Source: an uncultured Sphingobacteriaceae bacterium
Lineage (GTDB): Bacteria > Bacteroidota > Bacteroidia > Sphingobacteriales > Sphingobacteriaceae
Reading direction: 5' to 3'
Length of the DNA stretch: 51,638 nucleotides
Assembly (NCBI GenBank): GCA_946887045.1
Contig: CAMPKC010000028.1
Span: 1 to 51,638, forward strand
Both the position numbers and the translations under genes were made by a program. The notes below the pieces were generated by a model that did not search any database, was not told the DNA's origin, and was given only the letters and a program-made list of their open reading frames with translations. The number at the start of each line of letters is the position of its first letter. Position 1 is the stretch's first letter. Below are positions 18,901 through 46,207 of the stretch, in pieces.

Positions 18901-20076
18901 ATCAAGGGTATCTCTATTGGGTAAGGAACAACCTGCTCCATTTAATACAGCTTCGTAAGCATCAACGGCAGATTGCGGTGTTAGCGGATAACCTATATCA
19001 AAAGGTGACGTTGCTTTTGCCAGGGGCACATCAGCGCTGCCTCCCTGTGCCACTACACCCGCCCAATTATTTGAAGTGTTGGTTGGCGACCCGTCTACAT
19101 AGTTTCCATCCACATACCATTTTCCATAGCCGTCGGTTGTATTAAAGCTCGGGTTGCAAATCCGGTATCTTACCCCGCTTCCCGTATTCGGTCCATATTT
19201 GTAATAGTTGTTTACCACATTGTAGTTGCCACCTTCTCCGCCATACACATTATTGATTCCCCAGTTGTAAAGAACGTTATTGCGTAAGTCCACGTTTTCA
19301 ACCCCCACCGTATTAGGCGTGTAGCTGGAAACACCCGCAAAGCGGGGGGTACGGTTTCGGCAATGAGCAAATAAATTGTGGTGCATGCTGCCGCGCTTGG
19401 CTCCCCAGATTCCACCATAACCATGTTGCTCATAGTCGGTATCTCCTGTTTCCCAATGGTAAGAATAGTTAAGTGGTTCAGATATAATAGACCATTGAAT
19501 GGTGAGATTGTCGCCCCTGTAAACCGTTAGCGCTTCGTCGTTACTCCAACTCGCGGTTACGTGATCAATTATAATATTGCTGGGCCCGGTACCGCTTAAA
19601 GCATCCGCTCCACCACTGCCATCAACCGGGTTACCATTGGAATCTACTACCTTTTGGTACCGGTCGCCCACGCGAAAACGCATATAGCGGATAATAACAT
19701 TATCACCACTGATAGATACCTGATGGTCGGCCACGCAAATGCCATCACCCGGGGCCGTTTGGCCTGCAATGGTGGTATTTGCCTTAATGCTTAATCTTGA
19801 ATTAAGATGAATCGTGCCCGATACGCGGAATACAACCGTCCGATAAGTTGCCGGAGCTGTTAACGCATAGCGAAGCGACCCTGGCTGGCCATCGTCACTT
19901 AAGTTTGTTACTTCAAAAACCGTGGTGAACGCAGAAGGTGTCCCCCTCCCACCTGTGGTGTACATACCGGCGCCTTCCGCTCCGGGAAATGCAGGCAGCT
20001 GCGCTTGGACATCAATAGTGCTGCACAAGCACCAGAAGGTTAAAAAATTACCTACTAAGAGTAAAAATTTACGCAT
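12955..20076 (-). CDS. Giant secreted pectate lyase (PL1) - pectinesterase (CE8) fusion with T9SS sorting domain
   Basis: I start at the ATG at 20076 (2373 residues), where a signal peptide begins (MRKFLLLVGNF, cut after VQAQ). A longer frame adds 26 residues with no signal character. Residues 26-480 form a PL1 pectate lyase, with Asp171-His172 (IIIDHVTASW), the Arg-rich NRTPRFAG (241-248) and a Ca-binding DSDHDGMSD repeat near 438. Two homologous Ig-like units (about 488-592 and 908-1012) flank a carbohydrate-binding-like and an Fn3-like region. CE8 spans 1019-1330, with Gln1126, Asp1149, Asp1172 and Arg1234 present. Long beta-rich parts, MBG-like, HYR-like and SprB-like units, a Cys/His motif and a type A T9SS domain (VNVYPNPVE) follow. 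One chain can thus demethylate and cut homogalacturonan. Confidence 0.93.
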   Translation of the reverse strand: MRKFLLLVGNFLTFWCLCSTIDVQAQLPAFPGAEGAGMYTTGGRGTPSAFTTVFEVTNLSDDGQPGSLRYALTAPATYRTVVFRVSGTIHLNSRLSIKANTTIAGQTAPGDGICVADHQVSISGDNVIIRYMRFRVGDRYQKVVDSNGNPVDGSGGADALSGTGPSNIIIDHVTASWSNDEALTVYRGDNLTIQWSIISEPLNYSYHWETGDTDYEQHGYGGIWGAKRGSMHHNLFAHCRNRTPRFAGVSSYTPNTVGVENVDLRNNVLYNWGINNVYGGEGGNYNVVNNYYKYGPNTGSGVRYRICNPSFNTTDGYGKWYVDGNYVDGSPTNTSNNWAGVVAQGGSADVPLAKATSPFDIGYPLTPQSAVDAYEAVLNGAGCSLPNRDTLDERIVNDVRNRTGRIIDVQGGYPHGTPYAQTVNAWPALNSIAPPADSDHDGMSDTWETNNGLNPNDANDRNIIASNGYTNLENYLNSLTNPVVNTNPVIYANAAFSSFAQTLGSPSTAQTFQISGANLTNDIVVTAPANYQLSTNGTNWSSSINLTPNSGNVSATISVRLNASATGTYSGVISAASDGATTINSAVNGSTSNPVPPVINQKQIIGIYPAMEGGFENQPAGTVSSAAPTGALNPSPTVWTTNGNASIMNDGNARTGSNYFTYTSTSTSTKNNYSPAVTTPLFVKGTKYIVQYYYRAPAPSLGNTVSGLLAATDNTGTTNFTTAYSTIAWVGTNGAWQKAALPYSLNNSFAPTTVFAGFRFNGGGTAIAKPFDIDDFVVYPADNQLLPSADILAPDPVLAATTTGNNNTIDISWSAPATGLDGGGYIVLRTSSSAVPALNANGLYSLGNNIGTGNTVVYIGRNTGFTDNGSVAALTQGITYYYHIFTADKAFNYSPAVTTSGATTDTSPVVSVSGILNPFSQTVGTPSPSQSFTVQGNNLTAITNVTAPAGFELSDDESTWKASLSFQPENKSLNETAFVRLNASTPGSHSGNITVASAGATNAQLAISGNTSNPVPEGYDVVVAADGSGNYTSLQAAINAAPSNRTTPYRILVKKGKYIEKVTIPSNKPFLHVVGEGINEVVFSWDDYAGKPGVTEIATITINSNDCVFMNMTIENSWGRKNDGPQALAVKVTGDRVIFKSCKMVSGQDTLMAHGNGKRQYYSNCYIDGNTDYIYGSAIAVFDSCVLYNRDRLDGSTSSVFTAASTPAGQTYGYVFRDCLLPNNNGQTTYTLGRPWGNAAPPHTSETKVVFLNCRMGTTVKPERWQVWTSETNTSLITYAEYKTRYFSGALVDLSKRVSWSKEFTDEQAAPYFVNSNIFGTWDPCSVLPETCAPFSAPISLSNFRVNRSSSQSNILFNVCWPINGVTFELHRSTDSVSFSKVKELVTLTDTTAAYMFTDVLPPSGISYFYKIVASKGGYETFTTDTVIKVDRSVPLNGDFRSAGSGFWTNASSGNGSNPASIWEKYVAASNSWVLQPAGVQPSNANVTVRSGHIVKMDGLKSVNNLTIEEGAVLNGNGGYGATPGAQTLRIGVGQAASVTFQNDGIFGGDTNPQDLIILEFNPACASVLWTGSGVSKITRLRPLPANTNALSVVFDQDVSLSYNLSGFTAYYNTATNATAENVTYTINKGKTIKLTNPSASFSPTGSTTTNPGGRYTYNIEGTLDMSVTTSTSNLVPYSNNASSIVSLNIGSEGVLKLGKGFNTVNSSPSTTGNNGKLVMTIADGGLVDATKTTNLNFGNNYFITSGTGALKRSVGSTSVSFPIGTSVTSYNPVTLTNTGTADNFSVSLKNTFDYQVADSSKVVNKQWDIIEDVSGGSNLTAKFGWVVADQASGFDPAQPTAVMQYKESTWSNTPAAIAGNGTVTDPYTVSASGINSLSAFGVTNYTKATPTIKLDAYNYSYDGNPHAVSGFAYGTGGEEDKLSPALSFVYKDTVGNILNSAPAKAGTYVVGATYAGNAYYKPASDTALITITPKALTITASNQVKECGTALNLGTTAFTVSGLLAADTVHSVLLTSEGAAESGSKGTYAIVAANAQGSGLSNYLISYLNGSLEVSDVNAPVITSRPEVPALCYSNSGTYTIPALSATDGCGSVNVSYSISGSTNRSGNGANASGSFNIGTSTIHWVVNDGNGNQATTETSVVINNPLSVSIPDVYAVDSNVDAKNTLYLGYGPSSLTINALPSGGTGPYTFLWNNVEGASSLSVNSAGVYTVNVIDALGCSSSASITINVEDVRCGNNNDKVKVCHNGKEICISSGDVQDHLNHGDRLGSCNPELASNSKEVETAKLKEVETANSSWVNVYPNPVELVVQVSVSSLQPGATLHFYNGTGILMRSLPMNKSTESVSMQGFIPGLYLLVIKNGNEVTTKKVLKQ

Positions 20077-20151
20077 ACAATTTGAATTAGGTTTATAATC
20101 GGGTTTAATAATTAGCTTATAAATTATGTGTTTTACAACGATAATTCCTTT

Positions 20152-20221
20152 CAAAACTAGCTAAAGTACTTTGAGACGAGGGACAAAAAACGGTCGAAAT
20201 GGTTCAATAATTGGTATTTTT
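20152..20221 (-). promoter_or_regulatory. Promoter and direct-repeat operator of the pectate lyase fusion gene
   Basis: The minus strand has TAGTTTTG (20159-20152), a full match to the Bacteroidota -7 box TAnnTTTG. Plus-strand GGGAC-A6 (20180-20190) covers the -33 area. Further upstream lie GGTCGAAAT (20192) and GGTTCAA...TTGGTA (20201-20216), 13 of 16 bases equal to 12451-12466 before the other pectin gene. This points to one shared activator. The remaining gap up to 20552 shows no supportable gene. Confidence 0.6.
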
Positions 20222-36129: not shown

Positions 36130-37518
36130 ATGATGTGGAAAAAATCTGTTTTTGTCATATTCTTTTTTTTCTTCATAAAGCTTTCTGTTGCCTCTCAAAC
36201 GAATTCTCTTAAGCCTCGCATCATTGTGCTTACAGATGTTTCCACCTGGGAAACTGACGATAGTGAATCGCTGGTCAGACTTCTCGCTTATGCAGATATG
36301 TTTGAAATAGAAGGTTTGGTTTTTACAACCGGCTGGAGTTTAGACAGTACGCGAAAAGATTTCTTTGATCTGATTCACAAAGCAATTGAGGCCTACGACA
36401 AAGATCTACCCAACCTGCGTAAACGATCAGGACAAACAGACTTTTCGCAAGATGATAACCGGCAAAAGATAGGATATTGGCCGAGCGCAAACTACCTGAG
36501 GACCCGTACCGTTTTTGGAAGTAAAAAACGAGGCATTACATTTATTGGAAGTGACAATGATTCGGAAGGCAGCGAACTCATCATAAAGTTAGCAGGTGAA
36601 AATGATGATCGGCCAATATGGGTACTGGGTTGGGGCGGAGGAAATACACTTGCCCAGGCAATCTGGCGAGTTCAACATGATAAAAACAACCTTGAAAAAT
36701 TTCTTAATAAAATCCGCTTCTATGCGATAACAGATCAAGATAGAGATCAAAATACCCCCTATGCAATAAGTTCCCACCAGTGGCTTCGTAAGGAGTTTGA
36801 AAAAAGCCTTCTCTTTCTTTGGGACGAATCTGCATGGAGTTATCAGAACGGCACGGGAAAGCGGGAATGGAGTCAGTACCAAACCCATATTCAGGATCAT
36901 GGTAACTTAGGAAGTGTATACCCTAAGTACAAATATGGGGTGGAAGGTGATACCCCTTCATTTCTTTATGTGTTGCCTAATGGACTAAACGTTCCTGAAA
37001 ATCCTGAATATGGAGGATGGGGAGGCTATTTTACACGAGATATTACTCCGGATGATGTAACGTATGCTTATACAAATCACAGCAAACTACCGGCAAGCAA
37101 GATTTCATCAAAATATGAATCGTATTTTTATCCTGCCATATTTAATGATTTCGCCGCACGTATGGACTGGGCAAAAGACGGCATGGGTAATCGAAACCCT
37201 GTTATTGCCATAAATCGGAAAAAAGATATCAATATTATCCGGCTTACGCCAAAGCAGGGATCATCAATAATTATTGATGCTTCGGCAAGCTCTGATCCTG
37301 ACGGTAACAAATTAAGTTATAAATGGTGGGTTTTGTCTGAAGCAGGTACTTATAGGCAAGCAATTAATTTAGACAATCCTGATTCAGATAAAGTCACGGT
37401 AAAGATACCGACCGACTCAGTCGGTCGTAGCTTTCATCTAATTTGTGAAGTAAAGGATAATGGGATCCCGAATCTCACTGCTTATCGCAGGATCATTGTA
37501 GAACCAAGTCAACGATAG
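36130..37518 (+). CDS. DUF1593 / Sde182-type nucleoside-hydrolase-like protein with C-terminal Ig-like domain
   Basis: A 462-residue exported protein with a signal peptide ending near SVASQ. Residues about 28-330 match DUF1593, a nucleoside-hydrolase-like fold seen in the cellulose-binding protein Sde182: LTDVSTWETDDSESLVRLL, IGSDNDSEGSELI, then WVLGWGGGNTLAQAIW. The aspartates near the N-terminus correspond in place to the metal-binding loop of nucleoside hydrolases, but the exact DxDxxxDD is not kept. Residues about 345-460 form an Ig/cadherin-like domain (DASASSDPDGNKLSYKWW). Family members are linked to polysaccharide use. The substrate is unknown. It is the first of two tandem family members, with 31 bases between them. 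Confidence 0.85.
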   Translation: MMWKKSVFVIFFFFFIKLSVASQTNSLKPRIIVLTDVSTWETDDSESLVRLLAYADMFEIEGLVFTTGWSLDSTRKDFFDLIHKAIEAYDKDLPNLRKRSGQTDFSQDDNRQKIGYWPSANYLRTRTVFGSKKRGITFIGSDNDSEGSELIIKLAGENDDRPIWVLGWGGGNTLAQAIWRVQHDKNNLEKFLNKIRFYAITDQDRDQNTPYAISSHQWLRKEFEKSLLFLWDESAWSYQNGTGKREWSQYQTHIQDHGNLGSVYPKYKYGVEGDTPSFLYVLPNGLNVPENPEYGGWGGYFTRDITPDDVTYAYTNHSKLPASKISSKYESYFYPAIFNDFAARMDWAKDGMGNRNPVIAINRKKDINIIRLTPKQGSSIIIDASASSDPDGNKLSYKWWVLSEAGTYRQAINLDNPDSDKVTVKIPTDSVGRSFHLICEVKDNGIPNLTAYRRIIVEPSQR

Positions 37519-37549
37519 TTATGATCTTCATATATATATAAGAATAGAC

Positions 37550-38590
37550 ATGCGTAAAATAAAATTACTGTTGTGTTGCATGGCATTAATAGTAACTGGA
37601 GTTCAGGGTTTTTCACAAACCCGAGTGGTAATCCTGACAGATTTCCCTCCTGTTGATGTAATTCCAGGTGGCGCGGGTTACGGTCCTGCTGAGAAGAGAA
37701 GTGATTCAGACGATGTGCAATCTCTAATCCGTTTTTTACTTTACACAAATGAATTTGATGTCGCCGGTTTGATAGCTTCTTCAGGAACATTCGCGAATGT
37801 GTCCAATAAACAGAATATTTTGGATATGCTGTATCTCTATGATCATGTCGATGAAAATTTGCAAAAACATGATGAGCGATTTCCGACCGCCGAACGATTA
37901 CGGTCGGTTACGTGGCAAGGTCGTTCTGGAACATATGGTCGACCTGCTTCAGAAATAATCGGAGTAAATAAAGATAGTGAGGCATCAGAGAAAATCATTT
38001 CTCTATTAAACCAATCAGACGAAAGACCTGTTTGGTTTTGTGTTTGGGGAGGATCCTGCGATTTGGCTCAAGCCTTGTGGAAAATAAAGGAAACGCGAAC
38101 ACCCGCTGAAGCAAAACGTCTTTTGAATAAAGTTCGCGTTTATTTAATTGGTCTTCAGGATGGTTCCGGGCAGTGGCTGCTTGATACGTTTCCCGACATA
38201 TTTTTGATTCTTTCCAAAGGAAATTATATGGGAATGTTTAATAATGCTAAGGGGGCTGATATTAAATTATCTGACCTAAATTGGATAAATCAGAATATTC
38301 GCAAAGCACATGGCCTTTTAGGCGCTATGTATCCTGAAAGTGGCTTCTATCCCGAAACACCAGGTGTTTGGGAAGGAGACTCCCCTTCATTTTTGCACTT
38401 GGTTAGTGCCATGCGTGGACTTAATAATGCGGAAAAGCCAGACCAGGAAAGCTGGGGCGGAAAATTTGTTCGACCTGATAAAAAAAAGAATCACTGGTTT
38501 GATGATCCTGCGGGAGCGGAAGCGGTTTTTAAATGGAGAAAACAGGTACAGGAAGATTTTGCAATGCGATCAGACTGGATGCATCCATAA
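37550..38590 (+). CDS. DUF1593-type nucleoside-hydrolase-like protein, short form
   Basis: A 346-residue exported protein (signal peptide ending GVQGFSQ) of the same family as the gene before it: LTDFPPVDVIPG, then SDSDDVQSLIRFLLYTNEFDV, NKDSEASEKI and WGGSCDLAQALWK. It lacks the C-terminal Ig-like domain and ends soon after the catalytic-like fold (RSDWMHP). The SDSDD stretch offers a better match to an aspartate metal site than its neighbour has. The two are divergent paralogues and very likely one operon. They may act on different substrates or form a complex. Confidence 0.83.
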   Translation: MRKIKLLLCCMALIVTGVQGFSQTRVVILTDFPPVDVIPGGAGYGPAEKRSDSDDVQSLIRFLLYTNEFDVAGLIASSGTFANVSNKQNILDMLYLYDHVDENLQKHDERFPTAERLRSVTWQGRSGTYGRPASEIIGVNKDSEASEKIISLLNQSDERPVWFCVWGGSCDLAQALWKIKETRTPAEAKRLLNKVRVYLIGLQDGSGQWLLDTFPDIFLILSKGNYMGMFNNAKGADIKLSDLNWINQNIRKAHGLLGAMYPESGFYPETPGVWEGDSPSFLHLVSAMRGLNNAEKPDQESWGGKFVRPDKKKNHWFDDPAGAEAVFKWRKQVQEDFAMRSDWMHP

Positions 38591-38769
38591 AGAATTGCAA
38601 TTGAACCGTCGCACTATTGATTTGACTGAGAACTAACAGTACGAGTTGAACAAAAAGATTTCCCACAAAACATCCCTTAACATATTTGCAGTTTCAAAAA
38701 AATGAATTTAACACGACGATGCATCTTCATAATCGTGGGGAATAATCATTAATGTTCCTATTTTTGAAC

Positions 38770-39414
38770 ATGGATCAGCAAGCAGTCATCTCTCACTATA
38801 TCAATACTTTTTTTCCACAGTTTGAGCCATCTTTGAAGGAAAAACTACTATTGAGCTGTACTCTTAAAAAATTTAAAGTGGGCGAGATTTTAATGCAGCC
38901 AGGTCAGTATTTCCGTTCGACTATGCTAATAGTTGAAGGACGTGTTAAGCTATATCGCCAGGGCGATGAAGGGGATGAATTTTTCATGTATTATATCGAG
39001 CCCGGTGGTGCCTGCGCCCTTTCAATGATTTGTGCGGCTAAACAGGAAACTAGTGAAATAATGGCCAAAGCTGTTGATGACACTGTTGCATTACTCGTTC
39101 CTATAGCTCTCATGGACGAATTAATGAAAGACTATAAATCCTGGTATTATTTTGTAATCGAAACGTATCGATCGCGCTACGAAGAATTGCTCACTGTAAT
39201 TGACAACATTGCGTTTAAGAGCATGGATGAGCGTCTGGAATTTTATCTAAAAAACCAGCATGAGAAACTGAAAAGCCGTCAGCTCAATATTACTCACCAG
39301 GAAATTGCTAACGATTTAAATTCTTCCAGAGAGGTCATCTCACGTTTGCTAAAGAAGATGGAACAAAGAGGCGACCTGATACTCCACAGAAATTATATCG
39401 AGTGGTTAAAGTAA
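38770..39414 (+). CDS. Crp/Fnr-family regulator of the sulfur cluster
   Basis: I start at MDQQAVISHY (38770, 214 residues). An ATG at 38752 adds six hydrophobic residues. Residues about 20-120 are a cyclic-nucleotide-type beta barrel with GEILMQPGQYF and VEGRVKLY. Cys82 and Cys88 in GACALSMICAA could sense thiols or persulfide, but this is inference. A long helix (about 128-150) leads to the winged HTH (about 172-214). Its recognition helix SSREVISRLLKKME has Arg187, Glu188 and Arg192, equal to CRP Arg180, Glu181 and Arg185, which read TGTGA. Four TGTGAC-N4-GTCAC-like sites lie in front of the sulfur genes, so it is very likely their regulator. No such site precedes its own gene. Confidence 0.9.
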   Translation: MDQQAVISHYINTFFPQFEPSLKEKLLLSCTLKKFKVGEILMQPGQYFRSTMLIVEGRVKLYRQGDEGDEFFMYYIEPGGACALSMICAAKQETSEIMAKAVDDTVALLVPIALMDELMKDYKSWYYFVIETYRSRYEELLTVIDNIAFKSMDERLEFYLKNQHEKLKSRQLNITHQEIANDLNSSREVISRLLKKMEQRGDLILHRNYIEWLK

Positions 39415-39441: not shown

Positions 39442-39486
39442 TGTGACAATTATCACCGACTATATGCCGGGTGTGTCCGATTTTTG
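39442..39486 (+). promoter_or_regulatory. Crp/Fnr operator 1 and promoter
   Basis: TGTGAC-AATT-ATCACC (39442-39457) has one mismatch in the palindrome. GATTTTTG (39479-39486) is an nAnnTTTG -7 box that starts 22 bases after the operator end. It serves the small membrane protein gene at 39507. Confidence 0.7.
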
Positions 39487-39506
39487 AGTTTCAATAGATA
39501 ATAATA

Positions 39507-39770
39507 ATGGAAACACTTAAGAGAACACTTTTCAGCCATTGGAATTTTATGAGGTGGTTTAGACTGGCGATAGGGCTATTTATTGCCTTTCAAGCTTTTC
39601 AACAACATAGTGAGTTAATGTGGCTGCTTTCTGCACTTTTTATTTTTCAGGCACTAAGCAATACCGGTTGCTGCGGCGCATCAGGATGCGCAATTCCCAC
39701 CCGGAAAACAAAATCTGAAAAAATTAAAGATGTAGAATTTGTAGAGGCAGAGACTCCGAAAAAAAGATAA
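39507..39770 (+). CDS. Small membrane protein with CCG..GC motif (DUF2892/YgaP-like tail)
   Basis: An 87-residue protein with two close membrane helices (about 17-30 and 35-52), then NTGCCGASGCAIP with three cysteines and a charged tail. It resembles the membrane part of YgaP-type rhodaneses (DUF2892) without a rhodanese domain. In this setting it may help move or bind sulfane sulfur at the membrane. The cysteine motif is the most telling feature. It follows operator 1 and is the first target of the Crp/Fnr protein. The function is unproven. Confidence 0.75.
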   Translation: METLKRTLFSHWNFMRWFRLAIGLFIAFQAFQQHSELMWLLSALFIFQALSNTGCCGASGCAIPTRKTKSEKIKDVEFVEAETPKKR

Positions 39771-39866
39771 TTTGATTTAGCATTCAGGAAACTAATTTCA
39801 TCATTCCATCCTATGGAATTGGTCAATTGCCTTTACTCCTATCTCTGATTTCGATTTCGTACCTGG

Positions 39867-39912
39867 TGTGACTTTTGTCACCGTTCAAACTCTCGGGCCT
39901 GTTGCACCTTTG
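39867..39912 (+). promoter_or_regulatory. Crp/Fnr operator 2 and promoter
   Basis: TGTGAC-TTTT-GTCACC (39867-39882) is a perfect GTGAC/GTCAC palindrome. CACCTTTG (39905-39912) starts 23 bases after its end. The operator centre would lie near -44 of the expected start, as for a class II activator. The ATG at 39928 follows. Confidence 0.75.
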
Positions 39913-39927
39913 TATCTTAAATCACTC

Positions 39928-40734
39928 ATGGAAATAGCAGGTTATATCGCATCAGCATTAATTGGTCTCTCTTTAGGGCTTATAGGCGGAGGAGGTTCAA
40001 TCCTTACCGTTCCTGTTATGGTGTACTTATTTGGCGTTAACCCGCTGCTGGCCACATCGTATTCGCTTTTTATTGTTGGCACAACAAGCTTTATCGGTGC
40101 TTTTAATAATTACAGAAAGCACCTTGTTAATCTGAAAGCCGCATTCTTTTTTGGCGCCACTTCGGTTGTCACAGTTTTTATCACACGGAAATTTATCATT
40201 CCTTTCATCCCTGAAAACATAATAACTTTTGGAGGTATAACGATTACGGAATCGTTTTTAACAATGGTGCTGTTCGGGTTACTGATGCTTGTTGCTTCAG
40301 TCAGCATGATTAGAGACAGAGATGAACCCGGAGATGCAAAAGAATGTTCTGACTGCATCAGGTTCTTTAAGCTATTCGGTTACGGAATCGGTATCGGACT
40401 GGTGACGGGATTTTTAGGCGCTGGAGGAGGCTTTTTGCTCATCCCGGCATTAGTATATCTGATTAAGCTCCCCATGAAAAAGGCCGTAGGTACTTCCCTG
40501 CTCATCATTGCACTTAATTCCGTTATTGGCTTTGCAGGCGACTTGGGTCACTTCCTGATTGACTGGCCGTTCCTTCTGACAATCACTCTTATCGCTATTG
40601 CGGGAGTTTTAGCCGGAGGCCTAATCAGCAAGAAAATCCCCGGTAACAGCCTAAAGAAATTTTTTGGATGGTTTGTCCTGCTAATGGGCATTTTCATTAT
40701 AATAAAAGAAGTTTTTGGAAACCCGGCTGGGTGA
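39928..40734 (+). CDS. Sulfite exporter TauE/SafE-family membrane protein
   Basis: A 268-residue permease of the TauE/SafE (DUF81) family, with about eight membrane helices and the two repeated glycine-rich motifs: GLSLGLIGGGGSILTVPV near the start and TGFLGAGGGFLLIPAL in the middle. I start at the ATG at 39928 (MEIAGYIASALIG). A longer frame from the GTG at 39868 would begin inside the Crp/Fnr operator and lacks sense. It probably exports sulfite or thiosulfate made by persulfide oxidation, or takes up a sulfur compound. It has its own operator and its stop codon overlaps the next operator. Confidence 0.9.
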   Translation: MEIAGYIASALIGLSLGLIGGGGSILTVPVMVYLFGVNPLLATSYSLFIVGTTSFIGAFNNYRKHLVNLKAAFFFGATSVVTVFITRKFIIPFIPENIITFGGITITESFLTMVLFGLLMLVASVSMIRDRDEPGDAKECSDCIRFFKLFGYGIGIGLVTGFLGAGGGFLLIPALVYLIKLPMKKAVGTSLLIIALNSVIGFAGDLGHFLIDWPFLLTITLIAIAGVLAGGLISKKIPGNSLKKFFGWFVLLMGIFIIIKEVFGNPAG

Positions 40735-40775
40735 CAAAAGTCACCGTTGAACATCGAGGCCAGCCACGACCTTTG
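40730..40775 (+). promoter_or_regulatory. Crp/Fnr operator 3 and promoter, main sulfur operon
   Basis: GGTGAC-AAAA-GTCACC (40730-40745) is a perfect 16-bp palindrome that overlaps the stop codon of the TauE gene. GACCTTTG (40768-40775) starts 23 bases after its end. ACCTTTGTATC is shared with operator 2. It likely drives all genes from 40800 to 44390. Confidence 0.78.
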
Positions 40776-40799
40776 TATCAATTAATTAAAACTTACGAA

Positions 40800-42218
40800 A
40801 TGATCATTGACCAAATTTACACCGGATGTTTAGCACAGGGTGCGTATTATATCCAATCAGGAAATGAGGCTGCAATAATTGACCCTTTGAGGGAGATAAA
40901 TCCCTATTTGGAAAAAGCTAAAGCTAACCAGGCAAGCATAAAGTATGTGTTCGAAACACATTTTCATGCAGACTTTGTATCGGGCCACATCGATCTATCG
41001 AGACAAACAGGCGCTCCGATAATCTACGGTCCGAATGCGAATCCAAGTTTCGATGCATATATAGCCAAAGACGGCGAAGAGTTTAAAATAGGAGAACTTA
41101 CCATCCGGGTACTGCATACTCCTGGTCATACAATGGAATCGACCTCCTATTTACTGCTAGATGCGCAGGGGAATCAAAAAGCGCTATTTTCCGGCGACAC
41201 TTTATTTATCGGAGATGTAGGACGTCCTGACCTTGCTCAAAAAGCAGCACATATGACGCAGGAAGAACTCGCAGGCGTTTTATTTGATTCGCTGCGAACT
41301 AAGATACTTCCGCTTAACGATGACATTATTGTTTATCCCGCACATGGAGCGGGTTCTGCCTGTGGCAAAAATATGAGTAAAGAAACAACGGACACGCTCG
41401 GCAATCAGAAAAAAACAAATTACGCTCTCCGGGCAGACATGACAAGAGAAGAGTTTATAAAGGAGGTAACGTACGGACTAGCGCCTCCCCCTGCATATTT
41501 TCCTTTAAATGTTAAGATGAACCGTGAGGGATATGAGAGCTTTGAAAAAGTGCTTGCCAAAGGAACTCAGGCGTTGGATCCTGAAGCTTTTGAGGCAGCG
41601 GCTAATGAAACCAACGCAGTTCTGCTCGACACACGCGATCCTGAAATTTTTGCAACCGGGTTTGTGCCAAACTCAATAAACATTGGTATCGATGGCAGCT
41701 TTGCTCCATGGGTGGGATCTTTAATTCCGGATATTCAGCAGGAAATTTTAATCATAGCTGATGAAGGCCGTGAAGAGGAAGTAGTAACCCGTCTCGCCCG
41801 GGTAGGATACGACCACGCGATCGGGTACCTTAAAGGAGGAATCAAAGCCTGGATAAACGCAGGAAAAGAAGTCGATAAAATTGAGTCGATCGATGCTGAT
41901 GAGTTAGCAAAGCGAATAGCAGATAACGAGAATGCTGGTATCCTTGATGTGCGTAAAAATACAGAACACTACTCCGAGCATCTGCTTGATTCGCAAAATG
42001 TGCCTTTAGACTACATTAACGATAGTATGAGCCAGCTCGATAAAAACCAAACGTATTACGTGCATTGTGCCGGTGGTTATCGTTCAATGATTTTCAATTC
42101 TATCCTGCGTGCACGAGGCTTTAATAAACTTATTAATATCAAGGGCGGCTTTAAAGCCTTAAAGGAATCCGGCAAGTTTAAAATTAGTCCTTACGTTTGT
42201 GCCAGTACGATGATTTAA
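40800..42218 (+). CDS. MBL-fold persulfide dioxygenase-like protein with two rhodanese domains
   Basis: I start at the ATG at 40800 (472 residues), after operator 3. A frame from 40668 would overlap TauE. Residues 1-245 form a metallo-beta-lactamase fold of the ETHE1/persulfide dioxygenase kind: THFHADFVSGH gives His54, His56 and Asp58, then His110 (TPGH), Asp133 (SGDTLF) and His182. Phe replaces the fourth His of classic THxHxDH, as usual in this subgroup. Two rhodanese domains follow (about 258-360 and 363-460). The first has no catalytic Cys (IIADEGREEE). The second has Cys423 in VHCAGGYRS. It should oxidise glutathione- or CoA-like persulfide to sulfite and may shuttle sulfur between domains. 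Confidence 0.93.
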   Translation: MIIDQIYTGCLAQGAYYIQSGNEAAIIDPLREINPYLEKAKANQASIKYVFETHFHADFVSGHIDLSRQTGAPIIYGPNANPSFDAYIAKDGEEFKIGELTIRVLHTPGHTMESTSYLLLDAQGNQKALFSGDTLFIGDVGRPDLAQKAAHMTQEELAGVLFDSLRTKILPLNDDIIVYPAHGAGSACGKNMSKETTDTLGNQKKTNYALRADMTREEFIKEVTYGLAPPPAYFPLNVKMNREGYESFEKVLAKGTQALDPEAFEAAANETNAVLLDTRDPEIFATGFVPNSINIGIDGSFAPWVGSLIPDIQQEILIIADEGREEEVVTRLARVGYDHAIGYLKGGIKAWINAGKEVDKIESIDADELAKRIADNENAGILDVRKNTEHYSEHLLDSQNVPLDYINDSMSQLDKNQTYYVHCAGGYRSMIFNSILRARGFNKLINIKGGFKALKESGKFKISPYVCASTMI

Positions 42219-42239
42219 TTCACTTAAAATTAATCACAA

Positions 42240-42566
42240 ATGAATATGTTTAGCAGTTTTTTTCCGAACAAAGAACACGACCTGGATGGAAGAACTTTCA
42301 AACAGAGGTTTGAAAACAGCAATAACGGCGTTCTGGTGGATGTTCGTACAGCTCCCGAGTTTAATAACGACACAATTCCCGGCGCAATAAATATGGATTT
42401 CATGTCGCCCGGATTTCAAAAAGAAGTTGAAAAACTAAATAAAGAAAAGACCTACTTCGTTTTCTGCCGCAGCGGCGGAAGAAGTAGCGCAGCAGCTTCA
42501 GTGCTAAGAAAGATTGGCTTAACAAGCTTCAACCTGATTGGCGGAATTGGAGCCTGGCCACACTAA
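42240..42566 (+). CDS. Single-domain rhodanese
   Basis: A 108-residue sulfurtransferase with no signal peptide. It has the usual VDVRTAPEFNNDTIPGAINMD strand-helix start (quoted in part: VDVRTAPEF, PGAINMD) and the active-site loop FCRSGGRSS with its Cys near residue 78. It would transfer sulfane sulfur between thiols, cyanide or CoA in the cytoplasm. It follows the dioxygenase gene by 21 bases and is likely in the same operon. It adds a free sulfur carrier to those fused in the neighbouring enzymes. Confidence 0.92.
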   Translation: MNMFSSFFPNKEHDLDGRTFKQRFENSNNGVLVDVRTAPEFNNDTIPGAINMDFMSPGFQKEVEKLNKEKTYFVFCRSGGRSSAAASVLRKIGLTSFNLIGGIGAWPH

Positions 42567-42588
42567 ATGTTCTCAATTATTAAAAAAG

Positions 42589-43422
42589 ATGAAACCTTTG
42601 ACCATTCTAATCCCTACTGATTTTTCGGAAGTTTGCCTTCTGGCACTTCCGATGGTTGATCTGCTGTCTCAAAAAATTCCGGTTCGGGTACATATGCTTC
42701 ATGTAATTGAAGTGAACGATTCAAGTTCGGATTATTCTGAAGGCCTTAATGATGTAAGCTCCATTTCTAAAAGAGAAAAAGAAGCATTGCACAATTTTGC
42801 TTTCTTGAGAAACACCTGGCGAGATTTCGAACTTCATATCGAAACAGGGTTATTGACCGACCAGATTAACCGTGCCGCATCAAAGTTAGAAGCCGATGTT
42901 GTTATAATGGGAACTAATGGCTCCGATGGTTTTATGGAGAAAATCTCCGGCTCAGAAGCACAACACGTAGTGAGGCATCTGCAGGTTCCGGTAATTAGCT
43001 TGAGACCCGGAACTATGGCTAGACAATTAAAGAACATTCTTCTTGTAGCCGACTTCGAACATTTTGAAAAAAGCATCCAGATAAATACCATAAAAACAAT
43101 TGCCAACGCGTTTAATGCAACCATACACTTATTACAGATACTGACCCTTGAAGAAGAGAAATATGCAGATGAAATAATAGAACAAATGAAGTTTTTTGCA
43201 AAAGAGCATGAGCTTTTAAAATTTGAAACCCATCTTTACAGAGACCATAAAGTTGTTAGCGGGGTACAAAATTTCAATAAGGAAGCCGATATGGATTTGG
43301 TTTGCATCCGTACTCATGGCCGAAAAGGTATAAATCATTTGCTCTTCGGAAGTATTGCCGAACGACTGGTGAACCACTGTATAAAACCATTGTTAACGTT
43401 TCAATTAAAAGAAAATGCTTGA
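42589..43422 (+). CDS. Tandem universal stress protein (UspA-like)
   Basis: A 277-residue protein with two UspA folds (about 1-145 and 146-277), starting MKPLTILIPTDFSE at 42589. An earlier frame start (42538) overlaps the rhodanese gene. The second fold keeps the ATP-binding pattern GRKGINHLLFGSIAERLV. The first has MGTNGSDGFMEKISGSEA, a related loop. Such tandem proteins are often induced with redox or sulfur stress, and here the gene lies inside the sulfur operon. Its stop overlaps the next start by 8 bases, so translation is coupled to the YeeE gene. Confidence 0.88.
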   Translation: MKPLTILIPTDFSEVCLLALPMVDLLSQKIPVRVHMLHVIEVNDSSSDYSEGLNDVSSISKREKEALHNFAFLRNTWRDFELHIETGLLTDQINRAASKLEADVVIMGTNGSDGFMEKISGSEAQHVVRHLQVPVISLRPGTMARQLKNILLVADFEHFEKSIQINTIKTIANAFNATIHLLQILTLEEEKYADEIIEQMKFFAKEHELLKFETHLYRDHKVVSGVQNFNKEADMDLVCIRTHGRKGINHLLFGSIAERLVNHCIKPLLTFQLKENA

Positions 43423-43972
43423 ATTTATTAGTCAACCCTGGCCATGGTACGTTTCGGGTACGGCCATCGCTTTTATTATGGTTTTATTGCTGATTTACGG
43501 AAAATCTTTTGGATTTTCTTCCAACTTAAGGACAATGTGCACCATTATGGGTGCGGGTAAAAGAGTAAAATTTTTCGATTTCGACTGGAGAACACAGAAG
43601 TGGAACCTGTATTTTCTAATCGGTTCAATATTGGGTGGATTTATAGCATCCACATGGCTCAATAGCGATGCACCACTGCAACTTTCGTCGGCAACAACTG
43701 CGGAAATAGAAGCCCTGGGAATCCACTTCGACGGCGGACTAAACCCGGCTCAACTCTTCGGAATTGAAGCGGTCAGTTCTTTAAAAGGTATTCTGATTCT
43801 ACTCATCGGCGGAATACTGGTAGGTTTTGGCACCCGCTATGCCGGGGGTTGTACATCGGGCCATGCAATCAGTGGCTTATCTAATTTGCAGGTCCCTTCT
43901 CTTATAGCAGTTATCGGATTTTTCGTCGGGGGTTTAGTGATGACGCACTTCCTGCTCCCATTAATATTTTAA
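43415..43972 (+). CDS. YeeE/YedE-type sulfur transporter, half 1
   Basis: A 185-residue membrane protein with about four or five helices and the family motif GTRYAGGCTSGHAISG, whose Cys is thought to pass thiosulfate or sulfur along the pore in YeeE. Full-length YeeE has two such halves in one chain. Here the second half is a separate gene starting 5 bases later. It overlaps the Usp gene by 8 bases. The pair should bring thiosulfate or a related sulfur anion across the inner membrane. Confidence 0.9.
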   Translation: MLEFISQPWPWYVSGTAIAFIMVLLLIYGKSFGFSSNLRTMCTIMGAGKRVKFFDFDWRTQKWNLYFLIGSILGGFIASTWLNSDAPLQLSSATTAEIEALGIHFDGGLNPAQLFGIEAVSSLKGILILLIGGILVGFGTRYAGGCTSGHAISGLSNLQVPSLIAVIGFFVGGLVMTHFLLPLIF

Positions 43973-43976
43973 TAGC

Positions 43977-44390
43977 ATGAAAGGATTGAAATTTATAGCG
44001 GCCGGCACTTTCTTCGGCATTGTAATGGCAAAATCTGAAGCCATATCATGGTATCGCATTCAGGAAATGTTCCGTTTCCAGTCGTTCCATATGTATGGCA
44101 TAATCGGAACAGCGGTAATACTGGGTGTTATTGCTGTATATCTGATTAAGAAATTCAGAATCAGAGACACAGAAGGTAATCCTGTAGTATTTCAGGATAA
44201 AGAAAGGAGTTGGAAAAGATACTTGATTGGCGGATCTGTATTTGGTTTAGGCTGGGCGCTGACGGGTGCTTGCCCGGGGCCAATGTTCGTAAATGTTGGC
44301 TATGGGTATCTCGCCATGCTTATTGTAATACTGGGTGCATTACTCGGAACCTATCTTTACGGTTTACTTCAGAAAAAGCTTCCTCATTAA
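43977..44390 (+). CDS. YeeE/YedE-type sulfur transporter, half 2 (DUF6691-like)
   Basis: A 137-residue membrane protein with four helices and the motif GWALTGACPGPMFVNVG. Its Cys corresponds to the conserved cysteine of the second half of YeeE. It starts 4 bases after the stop of half 1 and ends the operon at a strong hairpin. Split YeeE pairs like this are common in Bacteroidota sulfur clusters. Both halves are needed for a full channel, so the two products probably form a complex. Confidence 0.88.
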   Translation: MKGLKFIAAGTFFGIVMAKSEAISWYRIQEMFRFQSFHMYGIIGTAVILGVIAVYLIKKFRIRDTEGNPVVFQDKERSWKRYLIGGSVFGLGWALTGACPGPMFVNVGYGYLAMLIVILGALLGTYLYGLLQKKLPH

Positions 44391-44418
44391 TATTCTCATC
44401 TCAGAATACAGATATCAA

Positions 44419-44464
44419 AATATTAATTCCTGAGGTCGCAATACCAACCTCAGGAATTAATATT
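44419..44464. terminator. Bidirectional terminator between convergent sulfur genes
   Basis: A perfect 18-bp stem (44419-44436 with 44447-44464) and a 10-base loop. The stem ends in A/T-rich sequence on both sides, so it can stop both the YeeE operon and the reductase gene. It overlaps the stop codon of the latter. Confidence 0.88.
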
Positions 44465-46145
44465 ATACACATACCGGTTCTACCTGTCCCCTATTTATTT
44501 CTTCGCAATAGGTTTCCCATAAAAGATATCCACCGGAAAGATTGGCAACATTCTTAAAGCCGCGTTGTATCAATATTCTTTGAGCCAGATAGCCGCGCAT
44601 CCCTTGCTGACAAAAAATATAGACATCCTTATCATCCGGAATTTCTTCAAGTCTGTTGCGGATCTCATCCAAAGGAATATTGACGGCACCACGGATACTT
44701 CCAGAGATAAATTCGGCCTCTGTCCTGACGTCCAGTAAAAAGCTGTTCGCTTTCAGGGATTTTAGCTCTGAGCATTGAATTACTCTCAACCGTCCGAGCA
44801 ATATATTTTCAGCAACGAAGCCGACCATATTAACCGGATCTTTAGCTGAAGAAAAAGGTGGTGCATAGGCATGCTCAATCTCGGTAAGGTCGTAAACGGT
44901 ACCTTCATTCTTTATTACTGCGGCAAGTAAATCAACACGCTTGTCAGCCCCTTCTTTTCCAATTATCTGGGCACTTAATACCCTGCCGCTGTCTGGCGAA
45001 AATGCTATCTGGATAGTCATCAGTTGCGCATCAGGATAATACCCAGCATGAGAATTGCCGTGAATAGTGGATACAACATGCTCAATCCCGCTTTTTTTGA
45101 GCTGTTTAGCAGACATTCCCGCTGCTCCCACAGTAAGATCAAAAAGTTTAACTATTGAAGTGTTGATTGAGCCTTTGTAGGTTCGAACATTGCCAAACAC
45201 CAGATTATTGGCACAGATGCGTCCTTGTTTATTGGCGGGACCTGCCAGAAAGGTTACTGTTGATTGGCCCGATATCGGACTCGCAAATTCAATGGCATCA
45301 CCTACCGCATAAATATCAGGATCGGAGGTTTGAAGGTATTCATTAACATAAATGCCCTTTGCTGTCCCCAGTGCAAGGCCCGCCTTTTCTGCCAGCTGTG
45401 TATCAGGCTTAACGCCGATGGATAAGATTACGATATCTGCTTCAATCTCCTGATCTGTGCTTAGCTGACCCCCTATCGCTGCACCATTTTTCACGAATCC
45501 AGTTACCGAAGTGTTCAGATGAAGATCAATTCCTTTTTCACGCAAATGTTTTTGTGCGATAGCTGCTACCGGAAAATCCACAGGGGCCAGAATCTGATTG
45601 CCCATTTCAACAACACTTACATCTAAGCCGAGTTCATGAAAGTTCTCGGCCATTTCAAGGCCAATAAAACCGGCGCCAACTATCAGCGCTTTTTTCACTT
45701 CACGCGCATTAATAAATTCCTTTATATAGTCAGTATCCGAAACATTCCGGACAGTGAAAATGCCGTCGATTCCAATGCCGGGAAGTTGCGGCCGAATAGG
45801 ATTGGCGCCAGGCGACAACACTAGTTTGTCATAGCTTTCAGTATACTCTTCGCCTGATTGTAAATTTACAGCAGTAACAGTCTTCTGTGCAGGGCTGATT
45901 GAGGTAACTTCAGTTCCGATTCGGACATCGATGTTAAAGCGTGTAGAAAATGAGATTGCCGTTTGAACAAACAGCTTATTCCTGTCCTTAATTACATTTC
46001 CAATATAATAAGGCAAACCACAGTTCGCATAAGAAATGTACTGCCCTTTTTCAAAGATTACAATTTCAGCTTGTTCGTCAAGCCTTCTTAACCTTGCCGC
46101 TGTACTGGCTCCGCCTGCTACAGCCCCGATAATTAAATATTTCAC
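44463..46145 (-). CDS. CoA-disulfide / persulfide reductase with C-terminal rhodanese domain
   Basis: A flavoprotein of the CoADR-rhodanese (Npsr) type. I start at the GTG at 46145 (560 residues) because AAAGGAC lies just before it and the FAD motif KYLIIGAVAGG follows at once. The longer frame to 46199 would run through the promoter. FAD fold 1-150 has active-site Cys42 in SYANCGLPYYIG. NAD fold has GAGFIGLEMAENF (157-169), and the FAD-binding YAVGDAIEF is at 279-287. The dimer domain has YAPPFSSAKDP (427-437). The rhodanese (about 460-550) has Cys512 (FCQQGMRG). It should reduce CoA disulfide, CoA persulfide or polysulfide with NAD(P)H. It has its own Crp/Fnr operator. Confidence 0.93.
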   Translation of the reverse strand: MKYLIIGAVAGGASTAARLRRLDEQAEIVIFEKGQYISYANCGLPYYIGNVIKDRNKLFVQTAISFSTRFNIDVRIGTEVTSISPAQKTVTAVNLQSGEEYTESYDKLVLSPGANPIRPQLPGIGIDGIFTVRNVSDTDYIKEFINAREVKKALIVGAGFIGLEMAENFHELGLDVSVVEMGNQILAPVDFPVAAIAQKHLREKGIDLHLNTSVTGFVKNGAAIGGQLSTDQEIEADIVILSIGVKPDTQLAEKAGLALGTAKGIYVNEYLQTSDPDIYAVGDAIEFASPISGQSTVTFLAGPANKQGRICANNLVFGNVRTYKGSINTSIVKLFDLTVGAAGMSAKQLKKSGIEHVVSTIHGNSHAGYYPDAQLMTIQIAFSPDSGRVLSAQIIGKEGADKRVDLLAAVIKNEGTVYDLTEIEHAYAPPFSSAKDPVNMVGFVAENILLGRLRVIQCSELKSLKANSFLLDVRTEAEFISGSIRGAVNIPLDEIRNRLEEIPDDKDVYIFCQQGMRGYLAQRILIQRGFKNVANLSGGYLLWETYCEEINRGQVEPVCV

Positions 46146-46162
46146 GTCCTTTATGTTTTCTT

Positions 46163-46207
46163 CAAATTTTGAAGAAAACGTGCGCATCCTCGGTGACAAT
46201 TGTCACA
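46163..46207 (-). promoter_or_regulatory. Crp/Fnr operator 4 and promoter
   Basis: On the minus strand TGTGAC-AATT-GTCACC (46207-46192) is a perfect palindrome. AAAATTTG (46170-46163, nAnnTTTG) starts 22 bases after its end. AAAGGAC (46152-46146) and the GTG start follow. Confidence 0.75.

What the first reader, a model, noticed from the sequence alone, without database searches (positions are those of the whole stretch)
39442..46207. Four-site Crp/Fnr regulon around a sulfide/persulfide cluster
The sequence shows TGTGAC-N4-GTCAC palindromes (three perfect, one with a single mismatch) at 39442, 39867, 40730 and, on the minus strand, 46207. Each is followed 22-23 bases later by an nAnnTTTG -7 box. 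The regulator gene beside them has the Arg-Glu...Arg recognition helix that in E. coli CRP reads TGTGA, with Arg where FNR has Val. The sites control a small Cys membrane protein, TauE, the dioxygenase operon and the reductase. The signal (sulfide, persulfide, thiosulfate or other) is unknown. Cys82 and Cys88 in the sensor domain are candidates.
Basis: partly seen in the sequence, partly recalled or inferred. Interest (0 to 1): 0.75.

Follow-up and report, generated by a model that had tools for sequence, protein, structure and literature searches.

The report
Sulfide-detox genes under one switch
A two-cysteine relative of the E. coli CRP switch protein appears to turn on a bacterium's sulfide and persulfide clean-up genes, and the protein, its DNA sites and such genes recur together in many relatives.

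Summary
All four sites exist; the core is GTGAC-N4-GTCAC, with nAnnTTTG 22-23 bases on. The window has 4 such composites against 0.007 expected. An unbiased palindrome search upstream of sulfur genes in 69 related loci plus the window ranked this motif first (47 copies in 6% of the bases, 4 in the rest). TTTG starts exactly 26 bases after the core in 90 of 114 sites, the geometry of a class II activator. Proteobacterial homologues (26-32% identical) keep both Cys, mostly the sulfur operon, and in 11 of 12 loci a GTGAC-N3-GTCAC box. Best reading: a Crp/Fnr-type activator answering to reactive sulfur through cysteine(s) where CRP holds cAMP. Pairing and geometry are shown by comparison; signal and chemistry are inferred. 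Ten searches of an open-licence library found no such sensor.

The parts
38752..39414 (+). Crp/Fnr-family regulator, 220-aa ORF (likely start ATG 38770, 214 aa); Cys88/Cys94 in ORF numbering, helix R193-E194...R198
39442..39457 (+). operator 1 TGTGACAATTATCACC (one core mismatch), before the Cys-rich membrane protein
39479..39486 (+). -7-like box GATTTTTG, gap 22
39507..39770 (+). 87-aa Cys-rich small membrane protein, no Pfam or NCBIfam family
39867..39882 (+). operator 2 TGTGACTTTTGTCACC, before TauE
39905..39912 (+). -7-like box CACCTTTG, gap 23
39928..40734 (+). TauE/SafE-type exporter (PF01925); its stop codon lies inside operator 3
40730..40745 (+). operator 3 GGTGACAAAAGTCACC, before the dioxygenase operon
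40768..40775 (+). -7-like box GACCTTTG, gap 23
40800..42218 (+). MBL-rhodanese-rhodanese protein, putative persulfide dioxygenase (by homology)
42240..42566 (+). single-domain rhodanese
42589..43422 (+). universal stress protein
43415..43972 (+). YeeE/YedE-type transporter half (PF04143)
43977..44390 (+). YeeE/YedE-type transporter half (PF04143, DUF6691)
44463..46145 (-). CoA-disulfide-reductase-like protein with rhodanese domain (likely GTG start at 46145)
46163..46170 (-). -7-like box AAAATTTG, gap 22
46192..46207 (-). operator 4 TGTGACAATTGTCACC (minus strand), before the reductase

Best explanation
The gene at 38752-39414 encodes a dedicated transcription activator of the Crp/Fnr superfamily. 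It binds GTGAC-N4-GTCAC centred about 41-42 bases upstream of transcription start, where a -33 element would otherwise lie, and recruits RNA polymerase to an nAnnTTTG -7 element (class II activation). It thereby turns on the local sulfide/persulfide defence genes: TauE exporter, persulfide dioxygenase-rhodanese, rhodanese, YeeE-type transporter, CoA-disulfide-reductase-rhodanese and a Cys-rich membrane protein. The signal is most likely reactive sulfur (persulfide/polysulfide built up from sulfide or thiosulfate), read by Cys88, helped in most members by Cys94, in the loop that in CRP holds cAMP. Shown by comparison: site, spacing, regulator-site pairing, gene set, cysteine conservation. Inferred: direction (activation), signal, thiol chemistry.
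For: De novo palindrome search: GTGAC-N4-GTCAC ranks first of all 5- and 6-base half-sites with spacers 0-10; 47 copies in the 6% of bases upstream of sulfur genes, 4 in the rest, nominal P 2e-52, in 33 of 70 loci (69 relatives plus the window). TTTG begins exactly 26 bases after the core in 90 of 114 upstream sites and 27 in 9; columns between carry little information. Whole genomes, exact composite against reversed-pattern control: 40 v 2 in 20 genomes, 34 v 0 in 49, 50 v 1 in 149 class-wide; the sets share a few genomes. Covariation: with Glu194 the third half-site base is G in 232 of 288; with Val194 it is A in 29 of 40; at least 5 changes on a 153-leaf tree; per locus with a site, Val: 14 A, 2 tie, 0 G; Glu: 60 G, 26 tie, 3 A. 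Both Cys in 81 of 81 close members including the window, 53 of 60 class-wide, 14 of 14 plasmid-borne homologues including Proteobacteria and one Bacillota; Cys88 in all of these and in 14 of 14 deeper members. CRP's cAMP-phosphate Arg is missing (Arg in 1 and 3 of 81 at positions 99 and 100). Targets elsewhere: YgaP-like, SQR-like, peroxiredoxin, thioredoxin. In 10 of 12 Proteobacterial loci opened the regulator is directly followed by YeeE-DUF6691 and/or MBL sulfur genes, mostly with DUF2892 first.
Against: No experiment. Cys94 is lost in 7 of 60 class-wide and 7 of 14 deeper members, some still beside rhodanese-type genes, so an obligatory two-Cys crosslink cannot be general. The model is weakest just there (block 91-100, mean pLDDT 58), so no Cys-Cys distance can be read. 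Exceptions: 3 Glu loci carry mainly A-type sites; 5 of 19 PDO genes in regulator-positive genomes lack the composite, and 6 genomes with a diverged regulator lack it too. Some composites stand before genes with no plain sulfur role. Gene functions rest on homology; several NCBIfam cut-offs are not reached. P values are nominal because the loci are related.
Confidence: 0.72

Rival explanations
1. The regulator pairs with these sites but senses general thiol oxidation (peroxide, disulfide stress) through Cys88/Cys94; sulfur genes are a downstream need.
For: A cysteine pair is not specific to sulfur; peroxiredoxin and thioredoxin are among targets in relatives.
Against: Targets read are mainly sulfide/persulfide genes; Proteobacterial regulators sit on sulfur operons too.
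Confidence: 0.12
2. A heme- or NO-sensing regulator of the HcpR/DNR kind that has taken over sulfur genes.
For: HcpR2 uses the sister motif GTAAC-N4-GTTAC (PMC1274295, passages).
Against: Position 181 is Glu or Val, not Pro; no hcp among the downstream genes read. Heme binding not testable here.
Confidence: 0.05
3. A metal sensor (Cu, Zn or similar bound by the cysteines).
For: Cys pair; one Proteobacterial locus lies beside a metal P-type ATPase and cueR.
Against: No metal gene among Bacteroidota downstream genes read.
Confidence: 0.05
4. The sites are read by another Crp/Fnr paralogue and the neighbouring regulator is a bystander.
For: Bacteroidota genomes hold other Crp/Fnr proteins.
Against: Helix-operator covariation; the family is discrete, next paralogues 20-25% identical; all 8 regulator-negative genomes with a site had a diverged member.
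Confidence: 0.03
5. A cAMP- or other small-molecule-binding CRP-like regulator, the cysteines being structural.
For: cNMP-binding fold and CRP-like half-site.
Against: Phosphate-cassette Arg absent.
Confidence: 0.03

Closest known systems
E. coli CRP and Crp/Fnr activators in general
   Same: Fold and domains; R-E...R helix; TGTGA-type half-site with the same overall spacing; class II position.
   Different: cAMP-phosphate Arg missing; Cys pair in that cassette; small local regulon; Bacteroidota -7 element.
HcpR2 (Rodionov et al. 2005, PMC1274295, passages seen)
   Same: Crp/Fnr family; sister motif GTAAC-N4-GTTAC, which Val194 members here also use.
   Different: Mostly Pro at helix position 181; controls hcp.
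Persulfide sensors CstR, SqrR/BigR, FisR (PMC8148161 and PMC7315123, passages seen)
   Same: Same kind of targets (PDO, SQR, TauE, YeeE); SqrR and BigR are dithiol sensors.
   Different: Other folds: CsoR-like, ArsR, sigma-54 activator; CstR, SqrR and BigR are repressors.
PDB 3dv8 (Eubacterium rectale EUBREC_1222)
   Same: Nearest solved relative by sequence and fold; also has C-x2-S-x2-C at the same place.
   Different: 26% identical; titles seen give no function; its target genes were not looked at.
A. baumannii Crp persulfidation (PMC7315123, passages seen)
   Same: A Crp protein modified by persulfide.
   Different: A global cAMP-type Crp whose conserved Cys lies opposite the pocket; function of the modification unknown there.

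Membership tests
Crp/Fnr superfamily | cNMP-binding-fold domain plus Crp-type helix-turn-helix | tested here: met
   PF00027, PF13545 and PF00325 above cut-off; PDB matches
CRP proper (cAMP receptor) | Arg/Ser phosphate-binding cassette for cAMP | tested here: not met
   Arg in 1 and 3 of 81 at positions 99 and 100; NF008732 49.9 bits against cut-off 266
FNR proper | N-terminal Fe-S cysteines | tested here: not met
   Window protein has only Cys36, 88, 94; Cys36 in 8 of 81
HcpR2 | Pro181-type helix with hcp as target | tested here: not met
   Glu or Val at that place; no hcp among downstream genes read
HcpR / DNR type NO sensors | Heme binding | not testable with these tools
   none
Class II Crp-type activator | Fixed site-to-core-promoter spacing, centre near -41.5, no -33 element | tested here: met
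   TTTG at +26 in 90 of 114, no conserved -33; transcription start itself not mapped
Reactive-sulfur regulators (functional group) | Control of sulfide/persulfide detoxification genes | tested here: met
   By site position only:
Reactive-sulfur regulators (functional group) | Thiol chemistry changing DNA binding or activation | not testable with these tools
   Only Cys conservation
CstR, SqrR/BigR, FisR families | CsoR, ArsR or sigma-54-activator fold | tested here: not met
   Crp/Fnr domains and fold

The most novel reading that the evidence does not exclude
A previously unnamed class of reactive-sulfur sensor built on the Crp/Fnr fold, with cysteine(s) replacing the cAMP cassette: common in Bacteroidota (a homologue at E 1e-40 in 60 of 149 class-wide genomes), present in Alpha- and Gammaproteobacteria with a one-base-shorter operator, and repeatedly switched in DNA specificity by the single Glu/Val change at CRP position 181.
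Probability: 0.6. Interest if true: 0.75.

Novelty: new variant of a known kind. Interest (0 to 1): 0.66.

Why it matters
The sulfide/persulfide regulators named in the papers seen here are CsoR-, ArsR- or sigma-54-type proteins. A Crp/Fnr-type activator would give Bacteroidota a sulfide response system of its own, and a compact operator-promoter (site, 22-23 bases, nAnnTTTG) usable as a sulfide reporter. The natural Glu/Val-G/A switch is a ready series for testing how Crp proteins change DNA specificity.

Tried and rejected
Considered and set aside: a cAMP receptor (cassette Arg missing); an FNR-type Fe-S sensor; an HcpR2 member; chance palindromes; a bystander regulator. The 16-mer TGTGACNNNNGTCACA with mismatches is too weak a statistic by itself.

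Led nowhere: the own-genome search, as no genome is held; the AlphaFold model for a Cys-Cys distance (low confidence at 91-100, coordinates not available). PgRsp of Porphyromonas (PMC6955866, passages), a 2025 Crp/Fnr helix paper (PMC12531629, passages) and a YeeE-like SoxT paper (PMC11582611, abstract and outline) gave nothing that names this family. Ten paper searches listed no Crp/Fnr persulfide sensor. One search was weakly posed ('crp fnr' does not match 'Crp/Fnr'). The library lacks most subscription papers, so absence from print is not shown.

Rows dropped before counts: of 63 regulator matches, 60 were fetched for (left out: G002, already held as L002; G145, stop inside; G166, over the 20-region limit). 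L152 is the same gene as L038, so 169 rows give 168 distinct homologues for the Cys totals; one search's site counts contain that locus twice. L234 has no helix and is not in the tree. together cover 68 distinct genomes (G009 in both); G002 and G069 are also's set; L039, L049, L055, L065, L072, L073, L075, L076, L078, L079 were searched in neither nor 68. One search used 50 PDO genes (the 30 best loci, with 400 bases upstream, plus 20 chosen regulator-negative ones, with 520) and a looser rule (up to 2 mismatches to GTGAC halves or 1 to GTAAC halves); L193 had only 3 upstream bases and G040 counts twice. One search examined 20 of the 30 distinct regulator-negative genomes. One search listed 25 of 51 plasmid records; 14 were opened. 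Searches read downstream genes only on fetched loci, not on every row. An earlier count gave 38 matches; the right sum is 40.
Full report
The place. The window is from a Bacteroidota organism close to Sphingobacteriaceae: named relatives of the regulator include Daejeonella, Pelobium and Pedobacter. No whole genome is held for it. Around 38.7-46.2 kb lie a Crp/Fnr regulator, a small Cys-rich membrane protein, TauE, an MBL-rhodanese-rhodanese protein (putative persulfide dioxygenase, PDO), a rhodanese, a universal stress protein, the two halves of a YeeE/YedE-type transporter and, on the other strand, a CoA-disulfide-reductase-rhodanese. Names rest on Pfam and homology; several NCBIfam cut-offs are not reached.

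The sites. The palindrome alone, scored loosely, is only modestly unusual. With the box it is 4 against 0.0067 expected. No such composite precedes the regulator itself.

De novo test in relatives. 80 loci carrying the regulator were fetched from named genome records. In 69 of them plus the window, all palindromes with 5- or 6-base half-sites and spacers 0-10 were counted near sulfur-gene starts (300 bases upstream to 40 inside) and elsewhere. GTGAC-N4-GTCAC came first: 47 against 4, with the upstream part only 6% of the bases. Over all 81 loci and allowing one mismatch, 114 sites lie before sulfur genes, 3 before the regulator and 36 elsewhere; 14 of those 36 also have TTTG at +26, some apparently before rhodanese genes that fell under my score cut-off. 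Among the 114, TTTG starts 26 bases after the core in 90 and 27 in 9; nAnnTTTG fits at 22 in 86 and at 23 in 9; intervening columns carry little information. The right half-site therefore takes the place of a -33 element: class II activation (inference; the Bacteroidota -33/-7 promoter and class II geometry are recalled knowledge).

Whole genomes. The exact composite gives 40 matches against 2 for the reversed pattern in 20 genomes (18 of 20 have one), 34 against 0 in 49 (23 of 49; one genome shared) and 50 against 1 in 149 genomes drawn class-wide (29 of 149). At most six per genome: a small regulon. Downstream genes read on fetched loci are mostly TauE and PDO, also the CoA-disulfide reductase, YeeE and the Cys-rich protein, and outside these YgaP-like membrane proteins (three tested, all PF11127), thioredoxin, a peroxiredoxin and, in two genomes, an SQR-like protein; the one tested matches the type III SQR selenoprotein-subtype model at 220 bits, below its cut-off of 525, and a YgaP-like 68-aa ORF lies between site and gene. 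Not all fit: RidA-like, glyoxalase-like, SnoaL-like, dehydrogenase-like and methyltransferase-like ORFs also follow composites (these five names are my reading of the sequences).

Regulator and site belong together. Before PDO genes of class-wide genomes a composite (looser rule) was found in 14 of 19 with a regulator at E 1e-40 and 8 of 31 without. All 8 of the latter have a more diverged regulator, as have 6 of the 12 site-less genomes searched. The recognition helix and the operator change together. With Glu at CRP position 181 (194 here) the third half-site base is G in 232 of 288 half-sites; with Val it is A in 29 of 40. The residue changed at least 5 times on a 153-leaf tree. Per locus, leaving ties out: Glu 60 G to 3 A, Val 0 G to 14 A, Fisher P 8e-13, nominal because loci are related. 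Rodionov et al. 2005 report the same kind of correlation for positions 180 and 181 in other Crp/Fnr regulators and cite mutagenesis there (PMC1274295, passages).

The sensor. Cys88 and Cys94 are in 81 of 81 close members, the window included. Class-wide, Cys88 is in 60 of 60 and Cys94 in 53 of 60; among 14 deeper members 14 and 7; among 14 plasmid-borne homologues 14 and 14. One gene is counted twice, so 168 of 168 and 154 of 168 distinct homologues. In the alignment to CRP they fall in the cAMP phosphate cassette region, whose Arg is absent. In three of four genomes searched other Crp/Fnr-like proteins were found, only 20-25% identical; of the three whose Cys region aligned, none has Cys88 and one has a Cys at the place of 94. 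The AlphaFold model (pLDDT 85, pTM 0.65) is poor at 91-100. Nearest by fold E-value and by sequence is 3dv8, for which no function was seen.

Beyond Bacteroidota. Tblastn on plasmids found 51 records; 14 were opened. Eleven Alphaproteobacterial loci and one Thiothrix locus carry the regulator. In 10 of these 12 it is directly followed by YeeE/DUF6691 and/or MBL sulfur genes, mostly with DUF2892 first; the exceptions are Thiothrix (DUF2892 only) and Azospirillum (DUF2892 further on). Both cysteines and the R-E helix are kept in all 12. A GTGAC-N3-GTCAC palindrome with at most one mismatch lies just after the regulator in 11 of 12 (7 perfect), none in Azospirillum. In the same stretches spacer 4 gave two one-mismatch hits further away and spacers 1, 2, 5, 6 and 7 none. 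The one Bacteroidota plasmid opened (Pontibacter) has spacer 4 and the standard gene set. The Bacillota homologue keeps the cysteines but is not beside sulfur genes in the stretch seen.

How it most likely works. Sulfide or thiosulfate raises persulfide/polysulfide in the cell; Cys88, with Cys94 where present, is modified; the changed effector domain sets the helices for GTGAC-N4-GTCAC; polymerase is recruited to the -7 element; exporter, dioxygenase, sulfurtransferases and reductase clear the sulfur. Site, spacing, pairing and gene set are shown by comparison; activation is a strong inference; signal and chemistry are inferences. Loss of Cys94 in some lineages means Cys88 alone may suffice there.

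Known or new. CstR, SqrR/BigR and FisR do the corresponding job with other folds (PMC8148161, PMC7315123, passages). Ten full-text searches of an open-licence library listed no Crp/Fnr protein in that role; subscription papers are mostly not held. I file it as a new variant of a known kind.

Noticed in passing
L236-L238, L267-L270, L273-L276, just after the regulator gene: Proteobacterial relatives have the same half-sites with a 3-base spacer instead of 4 (11 of 12 loci), an odd spacing change for a Crp-type dimer.
   Followed up: partly
window 40730-40745: The TauE stop codon TGA lies inside the operator of the next operon.
   Followed up: yes
L136, L139, L145, L148, L150, L222, L226, L229 (regulator gene): A subclade reads ESCIMSxLGG: first Cys kept, second lost, with R-V in the helix; L145 and L148 lie beside rhodanese and Cys-rich-membrane-protein hits.
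   Followed up: partly
L084, L092, L241 (also L240), position 1501: Composite matches sharing GTGACGATCGTCACAGGAT (L240 similar) stand before glyoxalase-like, short and SnoaL-like ORFs; they may belong to another regulator.
   Followed up: no
L086 and L102: In two genomes a composite match precedes a RidA-like gene.
   Followed up: no
G070 and G134: Two genomes with no regulator at E 1e-40 hold 6 and 5 exact composites; cause unknown.
   Followed up: no
L087, L103, L280, L281, L284, L287, L289 (one genome, G012): This genome holds several regulator copies, some with stops inside, and composites before a YgaP-like/SQR-like pair and a peroxiredoxin.
   Followed up: partly
window 12955-20154 (-): 2399-aa protein with a pectinesterase domain and a secretion-system C-terminal sorting domain.
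   Followed up: no
window 36130-38590 (+): Two tandem Sde182 nucleoside-hydrolase-like proteins just before the regulator.
   Followed up: no
window 39507-39770 (+): Cys-rich 87-aa membrane protein (NTGCCGASGC) matches no Pfam or NCBIfam family; a small protein with a similar TGCCGPAGC motif precedes the regulator in Pontibacter.
   Followed up: partly
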